This document shows, piece by piece, positions 6,435-49,988 of a stretch of DNA of 64,000 nt. This DNA comes from Halobacterium sp. CBA1132 (GTDB lineage: Archaea; Halobacteriota; Halobacteria; Halobacteriales; Halobacteriaceae): NCBI RefSeq assembly GCF_001485535.1, contig NZ_BCMZ01000002.1:62001-126000 (forward strand). Reading direction: 5' to 3'. The notes beneath the pieces were generated by a model. It searched no databases. It was not told the DNA's origin and saw only the letters and a list, made by a program, of their open reading frames with translations. Positions within the stretch are counted from its first letter, which is position 1. The number at the start of each line of letters is the position of its first letter. A program made the translations under genes and the position numbers.

Positions 6435-7316
6435 CTAGGGGCTGAGCGGCTTCACTCGTAGCTCTCCGAAGCCGTACTTCGAGTGAGTGCCAACCCGAAG
6501 GATACCGCTCTTCGCGGTCTCAATGGGGCGGTCGCCCTCGTACTTCACGACCTGCCCGTGGTCGACGGTCTGGAGCTTGTAGACCTCCCGTTGCTCGAGG
6601 ATCTTCTCCGCTCGCTCACGGAGATCCCGTCGACTCTCCTTCCACCACCACGGGACGTCTTGGTCGGCGGCGCTGGGGTACTCCGACTCCAGCACGAACG
6701 GCGTCGTCATCCCTACGAGGAAGGCCTCGCCGTCCTCGAGTCGGGAGTAGTCCAGGTCGTCGAGGTCGACAACCTGCGTGCCCTTCAGTCGCGTGACGCC
6801 GTAGCCGTAGTTCCGTTTGCCCCCGAACTGGAGGCCGTTAAGCACGTCCTCGCCCAGCGGGAGCGCATCGGGGTCATCGGCGTGCAGGTAGGCGTTGATG
6901 TACCACTTCGTCGTCTGCTGTTGGTTGTGAGCGCTCTCCGGCTTCCCCATGATTGTCTCATGGGACAGCGCCGGATGCCCGCTCTGCGGGCGAATGTCAT
7001 GCGTGTTCAGCGCATCTCGTGGGCGGCTTTCGAGAAGCCAGTGATGGGCCGGGTTCCGCATGAGGAACAGGTCATCGTAGCTCTCGACGTCCGGGAGGCT
7101 GCTCCCGAGGTATGGCCGGGTTCCGTTCTGCGAGTGTTCCTCGGGATACCTCCCGAACTGGCCGGGGACGAACATCCCGTGGCTGGCGTGAAGATGCTGG
7201 TGGACGTCGTGCGGAACGTGCTGGCCGAGTGCGTGGAGGATGGCGTTCCCCGAGACGTAGTAGGGGTGGCCGATGTAATCCATCTCCAGCTCCCAGTGGA
7301 CTTGCTGGATTATCAT
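6435..7316 (-). CDS. Cas5-like RAMP protein (HRAMP-type)
   Basis: This 293-residue protein is the last gene of a leftward three-gene operon. Starts at 7337 (overlapping the upstream stop) or 7316 (4 bases after it) are both possible; 7316 is used. It opens with a ferredoxin-like strand (VHWELEMDYIG) and has two glycine-rich RAMP loops, LQFGGKRNYGYGVTRL in the middle and VGTHSKYGFGELRV at the C-terminus. Cas5 and related proteins bind the 5' handle of guide RNA in class 1 effector complexes. The neighbours are a Cas7-like protein and an uncharacterised protein, and no CRISPR array is present. This combination matches the haloarchaeal HRAMP system described by Makarova and co-workers. Assignment to Cas5 rather than Cas6 or Cas7 is inference. 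Confidence 0.65.
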   Translation of the reverse strand: MIIQQVHWELEMDYIGHPYYVSGNAILHALGQHVPHDVHQHLHASHGMFVPGQFGRYPEEHSQNGTRPYLGSSLPDVESYDDLFLMRNPAHHWLLESRPRDALNTHDIRPQSGHPALSHETIMGKPESAHNQQQTTKWYINAYLHADDPDALPLGEDVLNGLQFGGKRNYGYGVTRLKGTQVVDLDDLDYSRLEDGEAFLVGMTTPFVLESEYPSAADQDVPWWWKESRRDLRERAEKILEQREVYKLQTVDHGQVVKYEGDRPIETAKSGILRVGTHSKYGFGELRVKPLSP

Positions 7317-36406: not shown

Positions 36407-36820
36407 ACAACACCGTTCGCGCTTTGTCTTAATATAGGTTGAGGTCATTAGTTCTATATCGAGTGCGTTTCTTCGCCATCGCCTCGACCCCGGCTGAGGA
36501 GAGTCAGAGCAAACTCGGAGCCCGGTCTTGTCGGCTCTACCCGGGGGAAGCGCCGTTGTGAGGGGGTTGCAGCATTCGTGCTTCACCGACGGCGTCGGGG
36601 TACTTCAAACTGGTCGTGATTATTGGGGTAATCACGACCAATCTATGCATAGACGAATTTCACCGATATTGGCACCCTCAAGCCATCTAAGAGGTAAATA
36701 GCGGATGATAGAACTATCATAAATTGTATTCTGCTATATCAAATTATTGGGGCGGCGGGAAGGATCGGAGAGCGCCTAGACAATCAAATTCCCTTTAGTC
36801 AGCCCCACGTACAGCCGGTA
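36407..36820. other. Intergenic region with a perfect 12-bp hairpin
   Basis: The stretch holds the leftward promoter of the integrase cassette near 36410-36440 (an AT-rich TTAATATAGG). It also contains arms TGGTCGTGATTA (36611-36622) and TAATCACGACCA (36629-36640) around TTGGGG. The hairpin could be a terminator, an integrase arm site or an operator. No CDS is supported before 36821. Confidence 0.5.
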
Positions 36821-36856
36821 ATGGCAGAGATTCCGGATACACTACGCCTTCTCTAC

Positions 36857-38305
36857 AGGCGGAGCAGGCCGAGTGCCTCGGGGCTTGACCCCGAGGGTGA
36901 AGGCCGTAAGCTCAGGTGGGTGTTCCACTTTCACTGTGGATGGCTGGCATTCAAGATAATCGCATTACTACACTAGTACTGGAGCGAATGGTTGACGCAC
37001 AGGCTCTCGTCAAGACGCTGGACGTCCAACTCGACATCCAGAGTGATAACGAGGGCCTGCTGTACGACGCCACACTTGAAGCACGGTGGGCGTACAACGA
37101 AACCATCCGACTCGCCAAAGAAGGCGTGGACTGGGATGCCATTCCCGACAGGGTAGCCGACGACGCTGACCTCGTGAAGAACACGACACAGCGTGTCGTT
37201 GCGAAGGCGCTCGATGCGATGGAGAACTACTACGAGTACGACGGCTTCGGCCAACCCAGCCACACCAAGGGCGGAACGTACCCGCTTCGTGCGAACTACG
37301 AGGAAGGGTACAACCTGTCGCTCACCGACGATGGTGACGTGGCGTTCCGCATCAGCGCGAAACCCTACAAGCACGTCACGGGCGTTCTCGAAGGCGACGA
37401 CGCCCACCTCGACGTTCTCAAAACCGCACTCGAAAGCGACGAGTGGAAGATTGGGGCGGCGGAAGCCCTGTTCCACAACGACAACCCCGAATTGCACGTT
37501 AATGTCACCAACACCGAGCAGACCGTTCGAGACAAGCAGGACTCACGAACGGTCGGCGGCGTGGACGTGAACGAGGACAACGTGGCTCTCACCGCACTCT
37601 CCGAGAGTGGCGTCGAGGACTCGTTGGTTATCGACTTTCCCGAAATCAAGTTCGAGCGCCACCACTACTTCACGATGCGCAAGCGCGTGCAGAACGCGGG
37701 GAAAGACAGTATCCACGAGACGCTGGACGGGCGCGAGGAACGGTTCGTCCGCGACCGACTCCACAAGGTGAGCCGTCACATCGTGGAGTGGAGCCGGCAG
37801 TTCGAGAAGGCGTGCATCGTCTTTGAAGACCTCAAAGAGATGCGCGACAGTATCGACTACGGCACGCGGATGAACCGACGCTTGCACCACTTGCCGTTCC
37901 GCGCTCTGCAATACTACACGTCGTACAAGGCGTCGTTCGAGGGCATCCCGACTGGTTGGATTGACCCATACAAGACGAGTCAACGGTGTTCGCTGTGCGG
38001 GCACGCCGAGCGTGCGAACCGCAACAAGAAGCGGTTCAAATGTCGAGACTGTGGGCATCAAGACCACAGTGACCGTGGTGCAAGCGTCAACATCGCCATG
38101 AAAGGCATCAAGAAGCATCAGGATTGGACTGTGCCTGCTCTCAACAGCCTTCCCACTGTGCGGACGGTGCGACGGCAGGCATCGGGGGCCGTGGACGCCC
38201 CGACCGTGACCCACGACACCGTTTGAGGCTATCAGACCGATGGTATCGTGGGGGTGTCCGATTAACCCACGGGAAGCCTCGGGGCTTGACCCCGAGGCGG
38301 TTCAC
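36857..38305 (+). mobile_element. IS200/IS605-type (IS1341-like) element carrying tnpB only
   Basis: Both ends carry the same hairpin (CTCGGGGCTTGACCCCGAG, near 36877-36895 and 38279-38297), and the right end finishes at TTCAC. The boundaries follow from exact in-frame repair of the TRAM gene, with insertion after TCTAC and no target duplication. No tnpA is present. Confidence 0.75.
36988..38226 (+). CDS. tnpB: TnpB RNA-guided nuclease
   Basis: The start at 36988 (MVDAQALVKT) gives 412 residues. The RuvC motifs are partly altered. VGGVDVNEDNVALTAL carries the first aspartate, IVFEDLKEMRD the glutamate, and SDRGASVNIAM the last aspartate. A zinc ribbon is present (CSLCGH and CRDCGH). The catalytic residues appear to be retained. 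It belongs to a different TnpB lineage from the copies at 20207 and 40790. Its own right-end hairpin is the likely guide-RNA scaffold. Confidence 0.85.
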   Translation: MVDAQALVKTLDVQLDIQSDNEGLLYDATLEARWAYNETIRLAKEGVDWDAIPDRVADDADLVKNTTQRVVAKALDAMENYYEYDGFGQPSHTKGGTYPLRANYEEGYNLSLTDDGDVAFRISAKPYKHVTGVLEGDDAHLDVLKTALESDEWKIGAAEALFHNDNPELHVNVTNTEQTVRDKQDSRTVGGVDVNEDNVALTALSESGVEDSLVIDFPEIKFERHHYFTMRKRVQNAGKDSIHETLDGREERFVRDRLHKVSRHIVEWSRQFEKACIVFEDLKEMRDSIDYGTRMNRRLHHLPFRALQYYTSYKASFEGIPTGWIDPYKTSQRCSLCGHAERANRNKKRFKCRDCGHQDHSDRGASVNIAMKGIKKHQDWTVPALNSLPTVRTVRRQASGAVDAPTVTHDTV

Positions 38306-38820
38306 GAAACAACACTCGAAAAGCAGGGGGATCAGTACACGATTTCAATTCCAGAAGAACTTGTCGAGGACAGCTCGCTTTCACCAGGGGACATCTGTCG
38401 GGTGGCGCTGCTTGCCTCAACGAACGACGTTCAGGAAGAAACGACCAACGCGCAATCTGCATCAAACGGTGAGCGTCACCGAAGTGGGAACCAGAATGAG
38501 ACGCCACCGGTAGAAGAAGGCGAAGTCCGCTCAGTAACCATCGATACACTAGGCGACCAGGGCGATGGAATCGCGAAGGTCGAACGAGGGTTTGTCGTTG
38601 TCGTGCCCGGGACTCAGCCCGGCGATAAGGCAGACGTCGAGATTACTGACGTGCGAGAGTCGGTCGCGTTCGCCGAACCAGTGACTGAGCCGGAAGTGAG
38701 ATAGTACGATCACCCCGACGGGATCTTCGACTTCGCTTGTAACTGCAACCAGGTACATTCATTACCACTCACTAGTAGTTTCACCCACAGTATACATTCA
38801 TTAGTTGCGTTCATTTTTAA

Positions 38821-38859
38821 TGTTCACTAGTGGTGTTCACTATTGATGTTCACTACACC
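38821..38859. repeat. Three tandem 13-bp repeats (TGTTCACTA...) before parA
   Basis: TGTTCACTAGTGG, TGTTCACTATTGA and TGTTCACTACACC are contiguous at 38821-38859. Related GTTCA and CACTAGTA pieces lie just upstream (38756-38820). The 13-base period and position 45 bases before parA suggest a partition site or an autoregulatory operator. An iteron role is the alternative, but no Rep gene is present. Confidence 0.6.
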
Positions 38860-38903
38860 ACGTAACGAATTACAGTAATGAATGAACGTACCGAACTTTC
38901 AAG

Positions 38904-39803
38904 ATGAGTGGTGTCTATGAAGAGAGTATGTTAGCGTACTCGACGTACAGCGAGGCAGGCGGGGTCGGCAAGACGACGACAGCCGCAAACCTCGCAGTCG
39001 CGCACGCCCGAGCTGGGCTAAAACCGCTCGTCGCCCCACTCGACCCGCAGGATGGTGACCTCTCTCGACTCTTCGGTGTCGACACAGACCGGACCGAATC
39101 GGTCGACAATATCGTCCGCCACATGATTCGGCGCCCGAGCGGCGACTTCGACGACCTCGTACGGACCGTCGAAGGCGTCGACATCATCCCGGAGCACAAC
39201 ATGCTCTCGGACCTCGCGGAGTACCTCCAGCGCGAGAAAGACCAAGCCGAAGCGATGGGGGAAGCATTCGGAATGCACGCGCAACTGCTGCGCGTCCTCC
39301 AGGAAGCCGGCGTGCCCGACGAGTACGACGTCCTCATCTGTGACCCGCCCGCGACCGAAGGCCCACACCTCTACAACGCGATTCACGCCACCCGCTCGCT
39401 CGTGATCCCCGTCGAGCCGAGCGCGAAGGGGCGAGCCGCCGTCGAAGGTCTCGAATCGCTTGTCGCCGGACTCGAGGATCAGCTCGACGTCGAGGTTGGC
39501 GTGCTTGCGGCGGTCCCGGTCGGCTTCAAGAATACGCGCGATCAGCGGACGATTCTCGACGAAATCGACTACCCGATCCCCGAGGTTATTGGCGAGCGGG
39601 CGTCACTGATGGAGGGCTGTTGGATGCAGCAGTGTTCGGCGTTCGAGTACGTCCGCAACCACCGGGACCGCCGACGCGACTACGAAATCGAGACGCTCGC
39701 CCAGTTCGACCGGATTGCCCGCCACCTGGAGGAGCAAGTCGGACTCGAAGCGCCGAACCCACCGGAACCCGGTGACCTCGACCACGAGGTGCTCTCCGCA
39801 TGA
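38904..39803 (+). CDS. parA: ParA/Soj-family partition ATPase
   Basis: The 299-residue protein has the deviant Walker A GGVGKTTTA near residues 19-27, then VAPLDPQDGDLSRLF and Walker B VLICDPPATEG. A second ATG at 38928 (MLAYSTYSEAGG) is an equally plausible start. ParA ATPases bind DNA nonspecifically and segregate plasmids with a partner and a centromere site. The partner candidate overlaps its stop (ATGA), and tandem repeats lie upstream. This supports a plasmid origin for this part of the window. Confidence 0.9.
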   Translation: MSGVYEESMLAYSTYSEAGGVGKTTTAANLAVAHARAGLKPLVAPLDPQDGDLSRLFGVDTDRTESVDNIVRHMIRRPSGDFDDLVRTVEGVDIIPEHNMLSDLAEYLQREKDQAEAMGEAFGMHAQLLRVLQEAGVPDEYDVLICDPPATEGPHLYNAIHATRSLVIPVEPSAKGRAAVEGLESLVAGLEDQLDVEVGVLAAVPVGFKNTRDQRTILDEIDYPIPEVIGERASLMEGCWMQQCSAFEYVRNHRDRRRDYEIETLAQFDRIARHLEEQVGLEAPNPPEPGDLDHEVLSA

Positions 39804-40198
39804 CGGGCATGAAAGAAGGAGCTGGCGAGGACCCCTTCGCATCCGGAGAAGAGAGTACGGACATCGAGAAATCGAGTTCATCCGACACGACCACGACCGA
39901 GTCCGAGACGACAGACTCTGAGTCGACGGAGTCAGCGCGACAGCAGCGGGCGATGCAGATTCCGTATAAGTTCCGGAGAGATGGCGTTCAGGATGGTCGT
40001 GAACGCGTGCCGCTATTCCTACAGAGTGAGACCAAGAGCGGTGAACGCGACGCCCAGCGAGAACTCGAAGACCGCTTCGACGACGACGTCTCGCTCACTG
40101 ACCTCCGGGAGGCGCTGATGAAGGCCGGGCTGGACCATCTCGACGAGGTCGAGGAGCACCTCGAAGAGTGGGGCTACGGGATGACCTTCGAGGAGTGA
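39800..40198 (+). CDS. Small partner of ParA (putative partition protein)
   Basis: The 132-residue protein has a disordered Ser/Thr/Glu-rich N-terminus, a middle PYKFRRDGVQDGRERVPLFL, and a helical C-terminus (LTDLREALMKAGLDHLDEVE). Its ATG overlaps the parA stop. Small proteins in this position on haloarchaeal plasmids are thought to act as the centromere-binding or adaptor component, in place of a classical ParB. No DNA-binding motif is obvious. Confidence 0.65.
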   Translation: MTGMKEGAGEDPFASGEESTDIEKSSSSDTTTTESETTDSESTESARQQRAMQIPYKFRRDGVQDGRERVPLFLQSETKSGERDAQRELEDRFDDDVSLTDLREALMKAGLDHLDEVEEHLEEWGYGMTFEE

Positions 40199-40343
40199 TA
40201 TCAGTCACGAACCTTACTCTGTAGCAGAAAGAGGGAACCGTTCGAGCAAGTTCGAAAGGTTCCATAAAACAGGGGAGATCAGCTTTATTGAAATCCGACC
40301 GGCGATCAGATTCTGGCGGCTGTCGCTAATTACAGGTAATACA

Positions 40344-40664: not shown

Positions 40665-40789
40665 CCAGACGGTTCTCGCCCTCCCGCGAGTAAGACGGTT
40701 TCCTTCAGAGACTGAGCTTCACACACCCACTTAGGGGTCGTTTCACCCAGGACAGCATCTGGCAATTGGGCGTTGTGAACTACCCTACC

Positions 40790-42091
40790 CTACTCGCTGA
40801 CGGCTGACGCCGTTCGCTCCTTGAGGGGAGGGCTTCCTGCTTCCACGACGCGCTTTGCAGATACGGACGTATCCACAGGGAGCGCAGTCTCCACAGGCGT
40901 TCGTTCGGAGTGTCCCACTCCTACATCTTCGAGGCCGCGAGAAAGGATGTTCCACGCCGCGTTCGCGTCCCTGTCCGCCTCAAACCCGCAGGCGGGACAG
41001 GAGTGTTCACGGACCCACAACGGCTTGTCGGTCGAGACGCCGCACGACGCGCACTCCTTGGTCGTTCCTCTCGGATTCACGGCGACGAAGTGCGTTCCTT
41101 CCCGTTCGCACTTGTATTCGAGTAACGTGAGGAACGTTCGCCACGCGGCAGACGCCGTGTTGCGACTGTTCGACGGTGATTCGAGCATCCCTTTCACGTT
41201 CAGGTCTTCGACCGCTACGAGGTCGTACTCCCGAGCGTAGTAGTTCGAGAGCTTGTGCAAGAAGTCGCGGCGCTTCCGTCGGAGATCGGCGTGACACTCC
41301 GCGACCCGCCGCCGTTGTTTCTCGTAGTTGTTTGACCCGTGTTCTTTCCGTGAGAGAGACCGCTGTTCGCGTTCCAGTCGTTCCCGTTCGGCGGAGAGGT
41401 CGAGCGACCCGACGGCGGTCCCGTCGGTATCGTGGGCGTACGTGAGTATCCCCACGTCAATGCCGACGCACCGCTCGGGATTCTCAGGCGGTTCGGGCGG
41501 TTCACGGTCCATTTCGACGTCCTCAGAAGCCTTCGGCTTCTGATGGGCTGCAGAAACCGTCATCGACGGTTTCTGAACGCCGAACGTGGCGAACCACTCG
41601 CCCGTCGGTTCCTTCTTGACCGTGACCTGTTTCACGGTGGCGTCGTCGGGGATGGCGCGATGGAGCCGTATCGGTATGTCCGCGAGTTTCGAGAGTGACA
41701 GGACAGTCTGACCGCCCTTCTTGTCGAGCTTGAAGCCAGACTGACTGTACGTGAAACTGCGGAACTCCCGTGGCGGCTTCCACTTGAGTTGCCCGACGCC
41801 GTAGCCGTTCTCCTTGAGTTTGGAGAGTCCTTTGAGATTGTCGAAGAGGCGTTCCACGACGGTTTGGAGAACCTTCGAGTACACGTCCGAGAGGCCGTCC
41901 CACCACTTCTTGAGGTCGGGTAGCTCCGACCGCAGGGTGGTCATCGACGGCAGTTCGCCGTGTTCATCTTGGTACTCGTTGAGGCGGTAGAGCGTGTGGT
42001 TGTACAGTTGCCGACAAATATCGCGGTGGCGGTCCAACTCCTCGCGGTGGGCATTAGACGGCTTGAGACGGTACTTGTAGGCGTAGTACAT
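40790..42091 (-). CDS. tnpB: TnpB RNA-guided nuclease
   Basis: The 433-residue protein has RuvC residues in CVGIDVGILTYAHD, VAVEDLNVKGM and DRDANAAWNIL, plus the zinc ribbon CASCGVS and CPACGF. The start at 42091 lies one base after the tnpA stop, so the two are translated together. It is a full-length, apparently intact TnpB of the IS605 type. Confidence 0.9.
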   Translation of the reverse strand: MYYAYKYRLKPSNAHREELDRHRDICRQLYNHTLYRLNEYQDEHGELPSMTTLRSELPDLKKWWDGLSDVYSKVLQTVVERLFDNLKGLSKLKENGYGVGQLKWKPPREFRSFTYSQSGFKLDKKGGQTVLSLSKLADIPIRLHRAIPDDATVKQVTVKKEPTGEWFATFGVQKPSMTVSAAHQKPKASEDVEMDREPPEPPENPERCVGIDVGILTYAHDTDGTAVGSLDLSAERERLEREQRSLSRKEHGSNNYEKQRRRVAECHADLRRKRRDFLHKLSNYYAREYDLVAVEDLNVKGMLESPSNSRNTASAAWRTFLTLLEYKCEREGTHFVAVNPRGTTKECASCGVSTDKPLWVREHSCPACGFEADRDANAAWNILSRGLEDVGVGHSERTPVETALPVDTSVSAKRVVEAGSPPLKERTASAVSE

Positions 42092-42092
42092 T

Positions 42093-42506
42093 CTACTCGC
42101 GTTGGTCCTCTACGTACTGTTTCAGCACATCCAGCGACACCTGCCCGGTCGAGATGAGGCAGTACGAGTCGTTCCAGAACGAGTCTCCCCACAGTTCGGT
42201 CTTCAGTTCGTCCGCGTACTCGTTGCGGATACGGCGGGCGGTCGCGCCCTTGACCGTGTTGATGAACTTCACGAGGTCCGTGGTGGGTTTCGCTCGGAAC
42301 AGGATGTGGACGTGGTCGTCCTCGCCGTCGAGGTTCGTCAGTTCGACGCCGTAGTTGTCCGTGAACCCGCTGATGACCCCGCGAATGAATTGGGTTCGCT
42401 CCTCGGTGAGCACTCCGCGCCGATACTTCGTGGTGAGTATCAGGTGGTAGTGCAGGGAATACGTCGAATGCGCTCCCGAGTCGAGGCCGTACTCCATTGG
42501 GTTCAA
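42093..42506 (-). CDS. tnpA: IS200/IS605 family Y1 transposase TnpA
   Basis: The 137-residue HUH transposase has the metal-binding HVH (H65, H67) in DDHVHILFRAKP and the conserved LWGDSFWNDSYCL segment. The C-terminal helix ends LDVLKQYVEDQ, where Y131 is the likely nucleophile. It moves single-stranded DNA by cutting beside subterminal hairpins. Length and motif order are normal for the family. Confidence 0.9.
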   Translation of the reverse strand: MNPMEYGLDSGAHSTYSLHYHLILTTKYRRGVLTEERTQFIRGVISGFTDNYGVELTNLDGEDDHVHILFRAKPTTDLVKFINTVKGATARRIRNEYADELKTELWGDSFWNDSYCLISTGQVSLDVLKQYVEDQRE

Positions 42507-42755
42507 CCAATAATATGCTACCCTACTGCAAAAACATGTTGATTGCGTGTGTCTGTGGGTCTGCTACCGAATCGTGTATGAGAACTGTGCGGCGCTGTAT
42601 CCCCTCCCTGCTCGCGCCTCCCGTTCGGTCGGGGCTCGCTGAGGAAGGGGGCTTAGCGCCTCGATTCAGCTAAAGAGCTGCGAGATGTGGCTTAAAGAGG
42701 AGGGAGAATAGCGGAAAGACTACCGTGGGTCAGTGTGACGGTAGTTCTGAACAGT

Positions 42756-48281: not shown

Positions 48282-49988
48282 TTAGAGCATGTACCGCTGT
48301 GCGAGTGGGAGTTCTGAGGACGGTTCGCAGGTCACGTGTTCACCGTCGACCGTCACCTCGAACGTTTCGGCGTCGACTTCGATGTCGTCGGGACAGTAGT
48401 CGTTGTGTAGCATGTCGCTCTTCGAGGGCGTGCGCGTCCCCTCGATGGGCACGACCTCTTTCTGGAGACCGTACGCTTCCCCGACGTCGGCCTCGGCTGC
48501 AGCGGGTGAGACGAACGACAGCGAGAGCCCGTATTTGGCGGTGCCTTTCGCCCCGGCGCGTTCACGCTGCTTGATCGGTTCGCAGGTCATCAGCGAGCCG
48601 TTGGACTCCCCCATCTCGGAGTGGACCGGGAATCCGCCCTTGAACGTCATCGCGGGTTTCACGCCGAAGAACGCGGGGTCCCACAGGACGATGTCCGCGA
48701 GTTTCCCTGGTTCGAGCGTGCCGACGTACTCGTCGATACCCGACGAGATGGCGGGGTTGATGGTGTACTTGGCGAGGTAGCGTTTGATGCGGTGGTTGTC
48801 GGCACCGGTCCCCTCGTCTTCGGGCAGCGGGCCGCGCTGGGCTTTCATCTTCGAGGCCGTCTGCCACGTCCGCGAGATGACCTCGGCAACGCGCCCCATC
48901 GCTTGGGCGTCAGAGGTCATCATCGAGATTGCACCCATGTCGTGGAGCACGTCCTCGGCGGCGATGGTCTCCGAGCGAACGCGGGACTCTGCGAACGCCA
49001 CGTCCTCGGGAACGTCCGGGTTCAAGTGATGGCACACCATCACCATGTCGAGGTGCTCGTCGAACGTGTTGTCGGTGTACGGCATCGAGGGGTTCGTCGA
49101 CGAGGGGAGCATGTTGGGTTCGCCGACCATCTCCATGATGTCGGGAGCGTGCCCTCCGCCCGCGCCCTCAATGTGGAAGAGGTGCATCGTCCGGCCGTCG
49201 ACCGCCTCGAACGTGTTTTCGAGGAAGCCCGCCTCATTGAGCGTGTCTGTGTGCATGCAGACCTGCACGTCTTCGTCCTCAGCCACGGCGAGCGCAGTGT
49301 CGATCGCCTCTGGCGTCGACCCCCAGTCCTCGTGAAGCTTGAGCCCACAAGCACCGGCAGCAACCTGCTCGCGTAGTGGCTCCGGGTCGGAGGCGTTCCC
49401 CTTACCGTAGAAACCAACATTGACCGGCCACTCGTCGGCTGCCTGGAGGAACCGCTTGATGTTCTCGGGGCCAGTCGTAGTTGTCGCTGCACCACCGCCG
49501 TAACCACCGCCGAGCATCGTCGTCAGACCCGATGCAAGCGCGTGTTCGTGGAGTTGGGCGGAGTTCCAGTGAATGTGGATGTCGAGTCCACCGGCGGTCG
49601 CAATTTTTCCCTCGGCAGGGTACGCGTCCGTCGACGGCCCGACGACCATGTCCACGCCGTCCATCGTGTCGGGGTTCCCGGCTTTGCCGATGCCGACGAT
49701 TTCGCCGTTCCGGATACCGATGTCACCAGCGACGACGCCGAGGACGGGGTCGATGACTGTTGCGTTCGTGATGACCCAGTCGAGTGCGCCTTCTTTTTGG
49801 GTGACGCCGGGCGCCATCCCGAGGCCGTCACGGAGCGTCTTCCCGCCACCGAAGACAGCTTCGTCGCCGTGCGTCCGAAAGTCCTGTTCGACTTTTGCGA
49901 ATAGCTCAGTGTCACCCAGTCGGACCTTGTCGCCCTCGGTCGGCCCATACAGTTCGGCGTAGTTCTCCCGGTCGATGTCACGAGTCAT
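48282..49988 (-). CDS. ureC: Urease alpha (catalytic) subunit
   Basis: The 568-residue catalytic subunit has the nickel ligands H138 and H140 (GLDIHIHW), the carbamylated lysine K217 in [12 protein letters not shown]246 in CMHTDTLNE, the [12 protein letters not shown] loop and the flap cysteine region MVCHHLNPD. It hydrolyses urea to ammonia and carbamate in the cytoplasm. Its start overlaps the ureB stop by four bases. Length is normal and all active-site residues that I can check are present. Confidence 0.97.

What the first reader, a model, noticed from the sequence alone, without database searches (positions are those of the whole stretch)
36821..38704. TnpB element inserted in a TRAM-domain gene after codon 12
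MAEIPDTLRLLY before the element and ETTLEKQGDQYTISIPEE after it rejoin exactly in frame when 36857-38305 is removed. This defines both ends of a tnpB-only element to the base (insertion after TCTAC, element ending TTCAC). It also gives a predicted guide target for its TnpB.
Basis: seen in the sequence. Interest (0 to 1): 0.55.

Follow-up and report, generated by a model that had tools for sequence, protein, structure and literature searches.

The report
TnpB insertion element splitting TRAM gene
A small mobile DNA element carrying only an RNA-guided DNA-cutting enzyme has inserted into a plasmid gene of a salt-loving archaeon, and a relative still has the uninterrupted gene, so the element's ends and likely target can be read off; it is a clean example of a well-known kind.

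Summary
Confirmed, and ordinary in kind. Window 36857-38305 is a 1449-bp tnpB-only IS200/IS605 (IS1341-type) element inside a TRAM-domain gene (36821-36856 + 38306-38704). Decisive evidence: an intact syntenic allele in Halobacterium sp. CBA1126, where the flanks meet without gap or duplication, 96% protein identity. In related copies the left end follows TCTAC in 29 of 32 cases, most right ends are ...TTCAC, and sequence beyond is unrelated from copy to copy. tnpB (36988-38226) keeps D-E-D residues and passes NCBIfam's TnpB cut-off; its 3' end plus the right end form a covarying omega-RNA-like structure resembling Rfam sot2652. Predicted target: TCTAC + GAAACAACACTCGAAA, the empty site itself. 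Additions: the junction alone fixes the ends only to 2 bp; tnpB lost its last 13 codons to a stop; no cognate tnpA was found in the genome; an in-frame ATG inside the element (38240) could still express the TRAM part; a chromosomal paralogue has perfect TCTAC but 3 of 16 guide mismatches; the 22-bp end repeats could collapse the element to a 48-bp in-frame remnant, a form seen in relatives and like published PATEs. Nuclease activity is inferred.

The parts
36821..36856 (+). First 12 codons of the TRAM-domain gene, ending in the TAM TCTAC (36852-36856)
   Evidence: orthologous bases in L098/L105
36857..38305 (+). tnpB-only IS200/IS605 (IS1341-type) element, 1449 bp
   Evidence: empty site; ends shared with other copies
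36857..36913 (+). Left end with near-terminal hairpin GCCTCGGGGCTTGACCCCGAGG at 36875-36896
36988..38226 (+). tnpB, 412 codons plus stop; RuvC residues D193, E280, D362; 13 codons shorter at the 3' end than the copy in L071
38129..38305 (+). Scaffold of the predicted omega RNA (reRNA); start approximate, taken from the Rfam sot2652 match 38129-38225 and the conserved structure
38276..38305 (+). Right end: hairpin 38276-38297, identical for 22 bp to the left one, and the terminal GGTTCAC
38306..38321 (+). Predicted 16-nt guide GAAACAACACTCGAAA, which is codons 13 onward of the host gene
   Evidence: position by analogy with ISDra2 reRNA (PMC8612924, passages); start of the variable region
38306..38704 (+). 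Remainder of the TRAM-domain gene (TRAM domain intact)
38240..38704 (+). Open frame from an ATG inside the element through the right end into the TRAM gene, 154 aa; possible fusion product, expression not shown

Best explanation
An IS200/IS605-family element that had lost tnpA and its small companion gene (an IS1341-type, tnpB-only derivative) was inserted as a single strand 3' of TCTAC in codon 12 of a plasmid TRAM gene, without target duplication, most likely with a TnpA supplied from elsewhere. The tnpB mRNA 3' end plus right end is processed into an omega RNA whose 3' tail reads on into the TRAM gene. The TnpB-RNA complex then recognises TCTAC + GAAACAACACTCGAAA, which exists only where the element is absent (the occupied copy shows TTCAC instead of TCTAC before the same sequence). 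Cutting empty plasmid copies favours repair from, or survival of, occupied ones and so keeps the element in a multi-copy replicon. Shown: insertion, ends, empty site, TAM consensus in relatives, coding capacity, conserved RNA structure, low dN/dS. Inferred: TnpA in trans, expression, RNA processing, cleavage, drive.
For: Empty site and synteny. TCTAC before 29 of 32 left ends. Junk-free boundary: the 14 aligned right ends agree up to TTCAC and diverge at the next base. RNA structure: 14 of 55 pairs with changes on both sides against 5.6 expected from shuffles, 0 of 500 shuffles as high, though the structure came from the same alignment. Rfam sot2652 at E = 2.8e-5 (9 of 9 relatives searched also match). 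D-E-D invariant in the 5 proteins aligned and aligned with solved TnpB/Cas12f. dN/dS 0.125-0.181 against 11 nearer copies, including 0.151 against L071, another tnpA-less copy with the same left-end-to-tnpB spacer. Mechanism precedent: PMC8612924 (passages) and PMC11870625 (abstract and outline).
Against: Every Rfam match is below the family's gathering score (61 bits). tnpB carries a stop 13 codons early. No cognate tnpA was found in the genome: the 3 Y1 transposases found are alike in score, and the one compared is 32% identical to the cognate one, so the element may be stranded. The relative's empty site has TTTAC. No expression or cleavage data.
Confidence: 0.85

Rival explanations
1. The element is a dead relic: tnpA gone, tnpB truncated, and it merely persists as a knock-out of a gene that is dispensable because a chromosomal paralogue (67% aa) is intact.
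For: No cognate tnpA in the genome; early stop in tnpB; intact paralogue at C1:1067267.
Against: Catalytic residues, zinc-binding cysteines and RNA structure are intact; the lost 13 residues lie in the stretch that overlaps the RNA scaffold; low dN/dS between two tnpA-less copies.
Confidence: 0.25
2. The element still lets the TRAM gene be expressed as a fusion from the ATG at 38240, with the 22 codons up to the element end replacing the first 12 codons; the host gene would then be altered, not lost, and tied to tnpB transcription.
For: Open frame 38240-38704 through the right end; the TRAM domain is C-terminal and untouched.
Against: The ATG lies in the conserved RNA scaffold, so its presence is not special to this insertion; no promoter, ribosome-binding or expression evidence; the N-terminal 12 residues are conserved in homologues.
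Confidence: 0.2
3. TnpB here acts as an RNA-guided repressor of TRAM genes (TldR-like) rather than as a nuclease.
For: The guide is TRAM coding sequence and the chromosomal paralogue has TCTAC plus 13 of 16 guide bases.
Against: D193, E280 and D362 are intact, whereas TldRs are catalytically dead (recalled, not from a call); the paralogue has mismatches at guide positions 6, 9 and 16; only 1 of 80 TRAM homologues examined has TCTAC at this place.
Confidence: 0.03

Closest known systems
Haloarchaeal IS200/IS605 elements with tnpB and sot2652-type omega RNA (Halobacterium salinarum; Rfam RF02657)
   Same: RNA at the 3' end of tnpB running into the right end; hairpin ends; related tnpB with tnpA in other haloarchaea (sotRNA identified with omega RNA in PMC12558985, passages)
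   Different: This copy lacks tnpA and the small companion gene; its RNA match is below the Rfam gathering score
ISDra2 TnpB and its reRNA (Deinococcus radiodurans)
   Same: TAM equals the insertion site; guide is the DNA flanking the right end; RuvC residues (PMC8612924, passages)
   Different: TCTAC in place of TTGAT; distant protein (PDB 8bf8/8h1j only E about 0.08); activity untested
PATEs: ISHwa23 and HqIRS46 core deletions of Haloquadratum walsbyi
   Same: Near-terminal palindromes that are direct repeats (22 bp in HqIRS46, 19 bp in ISHwa23) allow collapse to a terminal-only copy of about 50 bp (PMC3119063, section 30 read)
   Different: Here the copy is still full length; the collapsed form would be 48 bp rather than 52 and keep the reading frame
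IS200/605 TnpB as gene drive in plasmids
   Same: Element on an extrachromosomal-looking contig with ParA; guide matches the empty plasmid copy (PMC11870625, abstract and outline)
   Different: Shown there in bacteria; here inferred

Membership tests
IS200/IS605, IS1341-type (tnpB-only) | Insertion 3' of a fixed short motif, no target duplication | tested here: met
   29 of 32 left ends after TCTAC; flanks meet without duplication in the relative
IS200/IS605, IS1341-type (tnpB-only) | Subterminal imperfect palindromes instead of terminal inverted repeats | tested here: met
   22-bp hairpin unit at both ends in direct orientation
IS200/IS605, IS1341-type (tnpB-only) | tnpB present, tnpA absent, full copies with tnpA among relatives | tested here: met
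   no room between left end and tnpB; tnpA in relatives
IS200/IS605, IS1341-type (tnpB-only) | Mobilised by a TnpA in trans | not testable with these tools
   three other-family Y1 transposases in the genome
TnpB RNA-guided nuclease | Family profile above curated cut-off | tested here: met
   NF040570 125.2 against 100; PF07282 58.5 against 26.3
TnpB RNA-guided nuclease | RuvC D-E-D and zinc-finger cysteines | tested here: met
   D193, E280, D362 and C334, C337, C352, C355 invariant in 5 aligned proteins; solved-structure alignment
TnpB RNA-guided nuclease | RNA-guided DNA cleavage | not testable with these tools
   needs an assay
Rfam RF02657 sot2652 (omega RNA) | Score at or above gathering (61 bits) | tested here: not met
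   32.6 bits, E 2.8e-5 in the window; 9 of 9 relatives 39.7-54.6 bits
Omega RNA / reRNA (general) | Conserved covarying structure ending at the right end, followed by variable guide | tested here: met
TRAM-domain protein | PF01938 above cut-off | tested here: met
   65.2 against 21
PyTRAM RNA chaperone (NF053605) | Score above cut-off | tested here: not met
   58.3 against 85
TldR repressor | Loss of RuvC catalytic residues (recalled) | tested here: not met
   residues present

The most novel reading that the evidence does not exclude
A tnpA-less TnpB element maintains itself on a haloarchaeal plasmid purely by RNA-guided homing: TnpB destroys empty plasmid copies, while its own RNA scaffold doubles as the 5' leader of a TRAM fusion (ATG 38240), so that host-gene expression and element retention are coupled.
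Probability: 0.06. Interest if true: 0.6.

Novelty: new member of a known kind. Interest (0 to 1): 0.25.

Why it matters
It gives a base-level definition (ends, TAM, guide, empty allele in a named relative) for a haloarchaeal TnpB element in a genus where omega RNAs are already studied. Such a defined pair of occupied and empty plasmid sites makes the plasmid-homing idea testable in archaea. Otherwise it is an ordinary insertion.

Tried and rejected
Family-wide homing: I first thought TCTAC at the Y codon was a conserved landing site in TRAM genes. In 80 homologues (the best 80 of 181 found) only 1 has TCTAC there, so I dropped it.

Cognate TnpA at home: the Y1 transposase in the same window (42102-42464) belongs to a different element, 32% identical to the cognate TnpA, with TTTAG rather than TCTAC before its left end.

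In-frame remnants: I asked whether the 48-bp terminal-only copies sit in frame inside genes. Of 20 fetched (chosen by me from the short left-end matches listed, which listed more and was cut off), 18 follow TCTAC, but I made no statistical test of frame and claim none. A pattern search for such copies over 59 genomes used a spacer one base too long and found 1; I did not repeat it and its low count means nothing.

Alignment A1 holds 14 right ends picked by me; L014 was left out as a look-alike of L013, L009, L015 and L017 because an insert splits their right-end hairpin, and more distant or partial copies (L019, L023, L024 and others) were left out. The one search count drops duplicates, hits that miss positions 10-24 of the left end, and hits too near a locus edge.

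A search of viral contigs for the two-hairpin repeat found nothing and a first script for it printed nothing because its pattern was too narrow. No structure prediction was run.

Full report
Observation. ATG 36821 opens MAEIPDTLRLLY; at 36857 the frame enters foreign DNA and stops soon after; after 38305 it continues ETTLEKQGDQYTISIPEE to the stop at 38702-38704. Element length is 1449 bp, a multiple of three.

Empty site. The joined 144-aa protein was searched in 59 related genomes. The best hit, G009:C138:27202-27633, matches residues 1-144 at 96% without interruption; the gene is 410 of 435 nt identical. Contig length and position identify it as NZ_WPCF01000026.1, Halobacterium sp. CBA1126. 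Synteny holds on both sides: window 36521-36856 pairs with 6903-7238 and 38301-40335 with 7234-9266 of L098. The few bases by which the two matches overlap are the shared AC and neighbours, which is why the junction alone fixes the ends to 2 bp. There is no target duplication.

Ends and TAM. The left 57 bp and the right end recur in many related genomes. In 32 distinct left ends, 29 follow TCTAC; right ends mostly read ...TTCAC and are followed by unrelated sequence. The same 22-bp hairpin unit lies at both ends as a direct repeat.

What was lost. Full relatives have tnpA on the opposite strand and a small gene between the left end and tnpB (Y1_Tnp confirmed; the small protein resembles an antitoxin profile only weakly, below cut-off). 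In the window only about 70 bp separate left end and tnpB, and a near-identical spacer occurs in L071 (Halorarius halobius plasmid) and, less alike, in L012. These sit at other sites, so a tnpA-less form appears to have spread. The own genome has a second tnpB copy (86%, chromosome) and three Y1 transposases; none of the three lies next to either copy, and the one compared is 32% identical to the cognate TnpA.

TnpB. The 412-aa protein passes NF040570 and PF07282 cut-offs. D193, E280, D362 and four cysteines are invariant in the five proteins aligned (four relatives, three of them partial) and align with those of solved TnpB and Cas12f proteins. Compared with L071 it ends 13 codons early at a stop. 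Pairwise dN/dS (Nei-Gojobori) is 0.125-0.181 for 11 nearer copies and 0.229-0.250 for 4 distant ones; most of that divergence predates this insertion, so it does not prove selection on this copy.

RNA. Fourteen right ends aligned from within tnpB to 16 nt past the end show conservation up to TTCAC and none after. The consensus fold has 55 pairs; 96.9% of cells pair; 14 pairs have changes on both sides (shuffled mean 5.6; 0 of 500 shuffles as high), with the caveat that the fold was derived from this alignment. Rfam's sot2652, the Halobacterium salinarum transcript now called omega RNA (PMC12558985, passages), matches 38129-38225 at E = 2.8e-5 but below gathering; 9 of 9 relatives searched match likewise. 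At the gathering threshold the whole window gives no such match.

Target. By analogy with ISDra2 (PMC8612924, passages) the guide is 38306 onward. In the own genome, within 3 mismatches of TCTAC + 16 nt, there are two places: the element's own right junction (TTCAC instead of TCTAC) and the chromosomal paralogue (TCTAC perfect, mismatches at guide positions 6, 9, 16). The CBA1126 allele has TTTAC and 16 of 16 guide bases. Thus occupied and empty DNA differ at the TAM, as the homing model needs.

Consequences for the gene. The N-terminal 12 codons are cut off; the TRAM domain is intact; an ATG at 38240 inside the element reads in frame through the right end into the gene. An intact paralogue (67% aa) is on the chromosome.

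Comparison. Collapse of such elements through their terminal repeats to about 50-bp remnants, and probable movement of these, was described in Haloquadratum (PMC3119063, passages and section 30). Plasmid gene drive by IS200/605 TnpB has been reported (PMC11870625, abstract and outline only). I found no reason to claim anything new in kind; literature searches were and I make no claim about what is not in print.

Noticed in passing
window 40775-42669 (-): A second IS605-type element with tnpA (42102-42464) and tnpB (40790-42091). The same CBA1126 contig shows its empty site too: left end after TTTAG, right end TTCAC. Similar copies (about 90-97%) lie twice on the chromosome.
   Followed up: partly
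L009, L015, L016, L017 and L185-L214: A roughly 54-62-nt repeat of two adjacent hairpins with constant CGTGATGACGAGA...GAACCA and freely varying, still pairing stems. 54 exact matches in 26 of 40 genomes, none for the reversed pattern. In 9 of the 30 loci looked at it sits inside the terminal hairpin loop of IS605-type ends, at GGGG^(C/G)TTGACC or close to it; elsewhere it lies in other places. It recalls the SMR-A repeats of Haloquadratum (about 110 bp, PMC3119063, passages) but is shorter.
   Followed up: partly
L073-L092: 48-bp terminal-only copies of this element; 18 of the 20 fetched follow TCTAC. One frame of the consensus is open (RRSRPSASGLDPEAVH).
   Followed up: partly
L002 and L011: The own chromosomal tnpB copy and a copy in another species of the genus have nearly the same downstream sequence, suggesting one shared old insertion site.
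   Followed up: no
window 49546-49822 (+): Rfam 5_ureB_sRNA match (56.8 bits, gathering 40) lies antisense to a urease alpha-subunit-like frame at 48282-49988 (-); probably coding-sequence similarity rather than an sRNA.
   Followed up: partly
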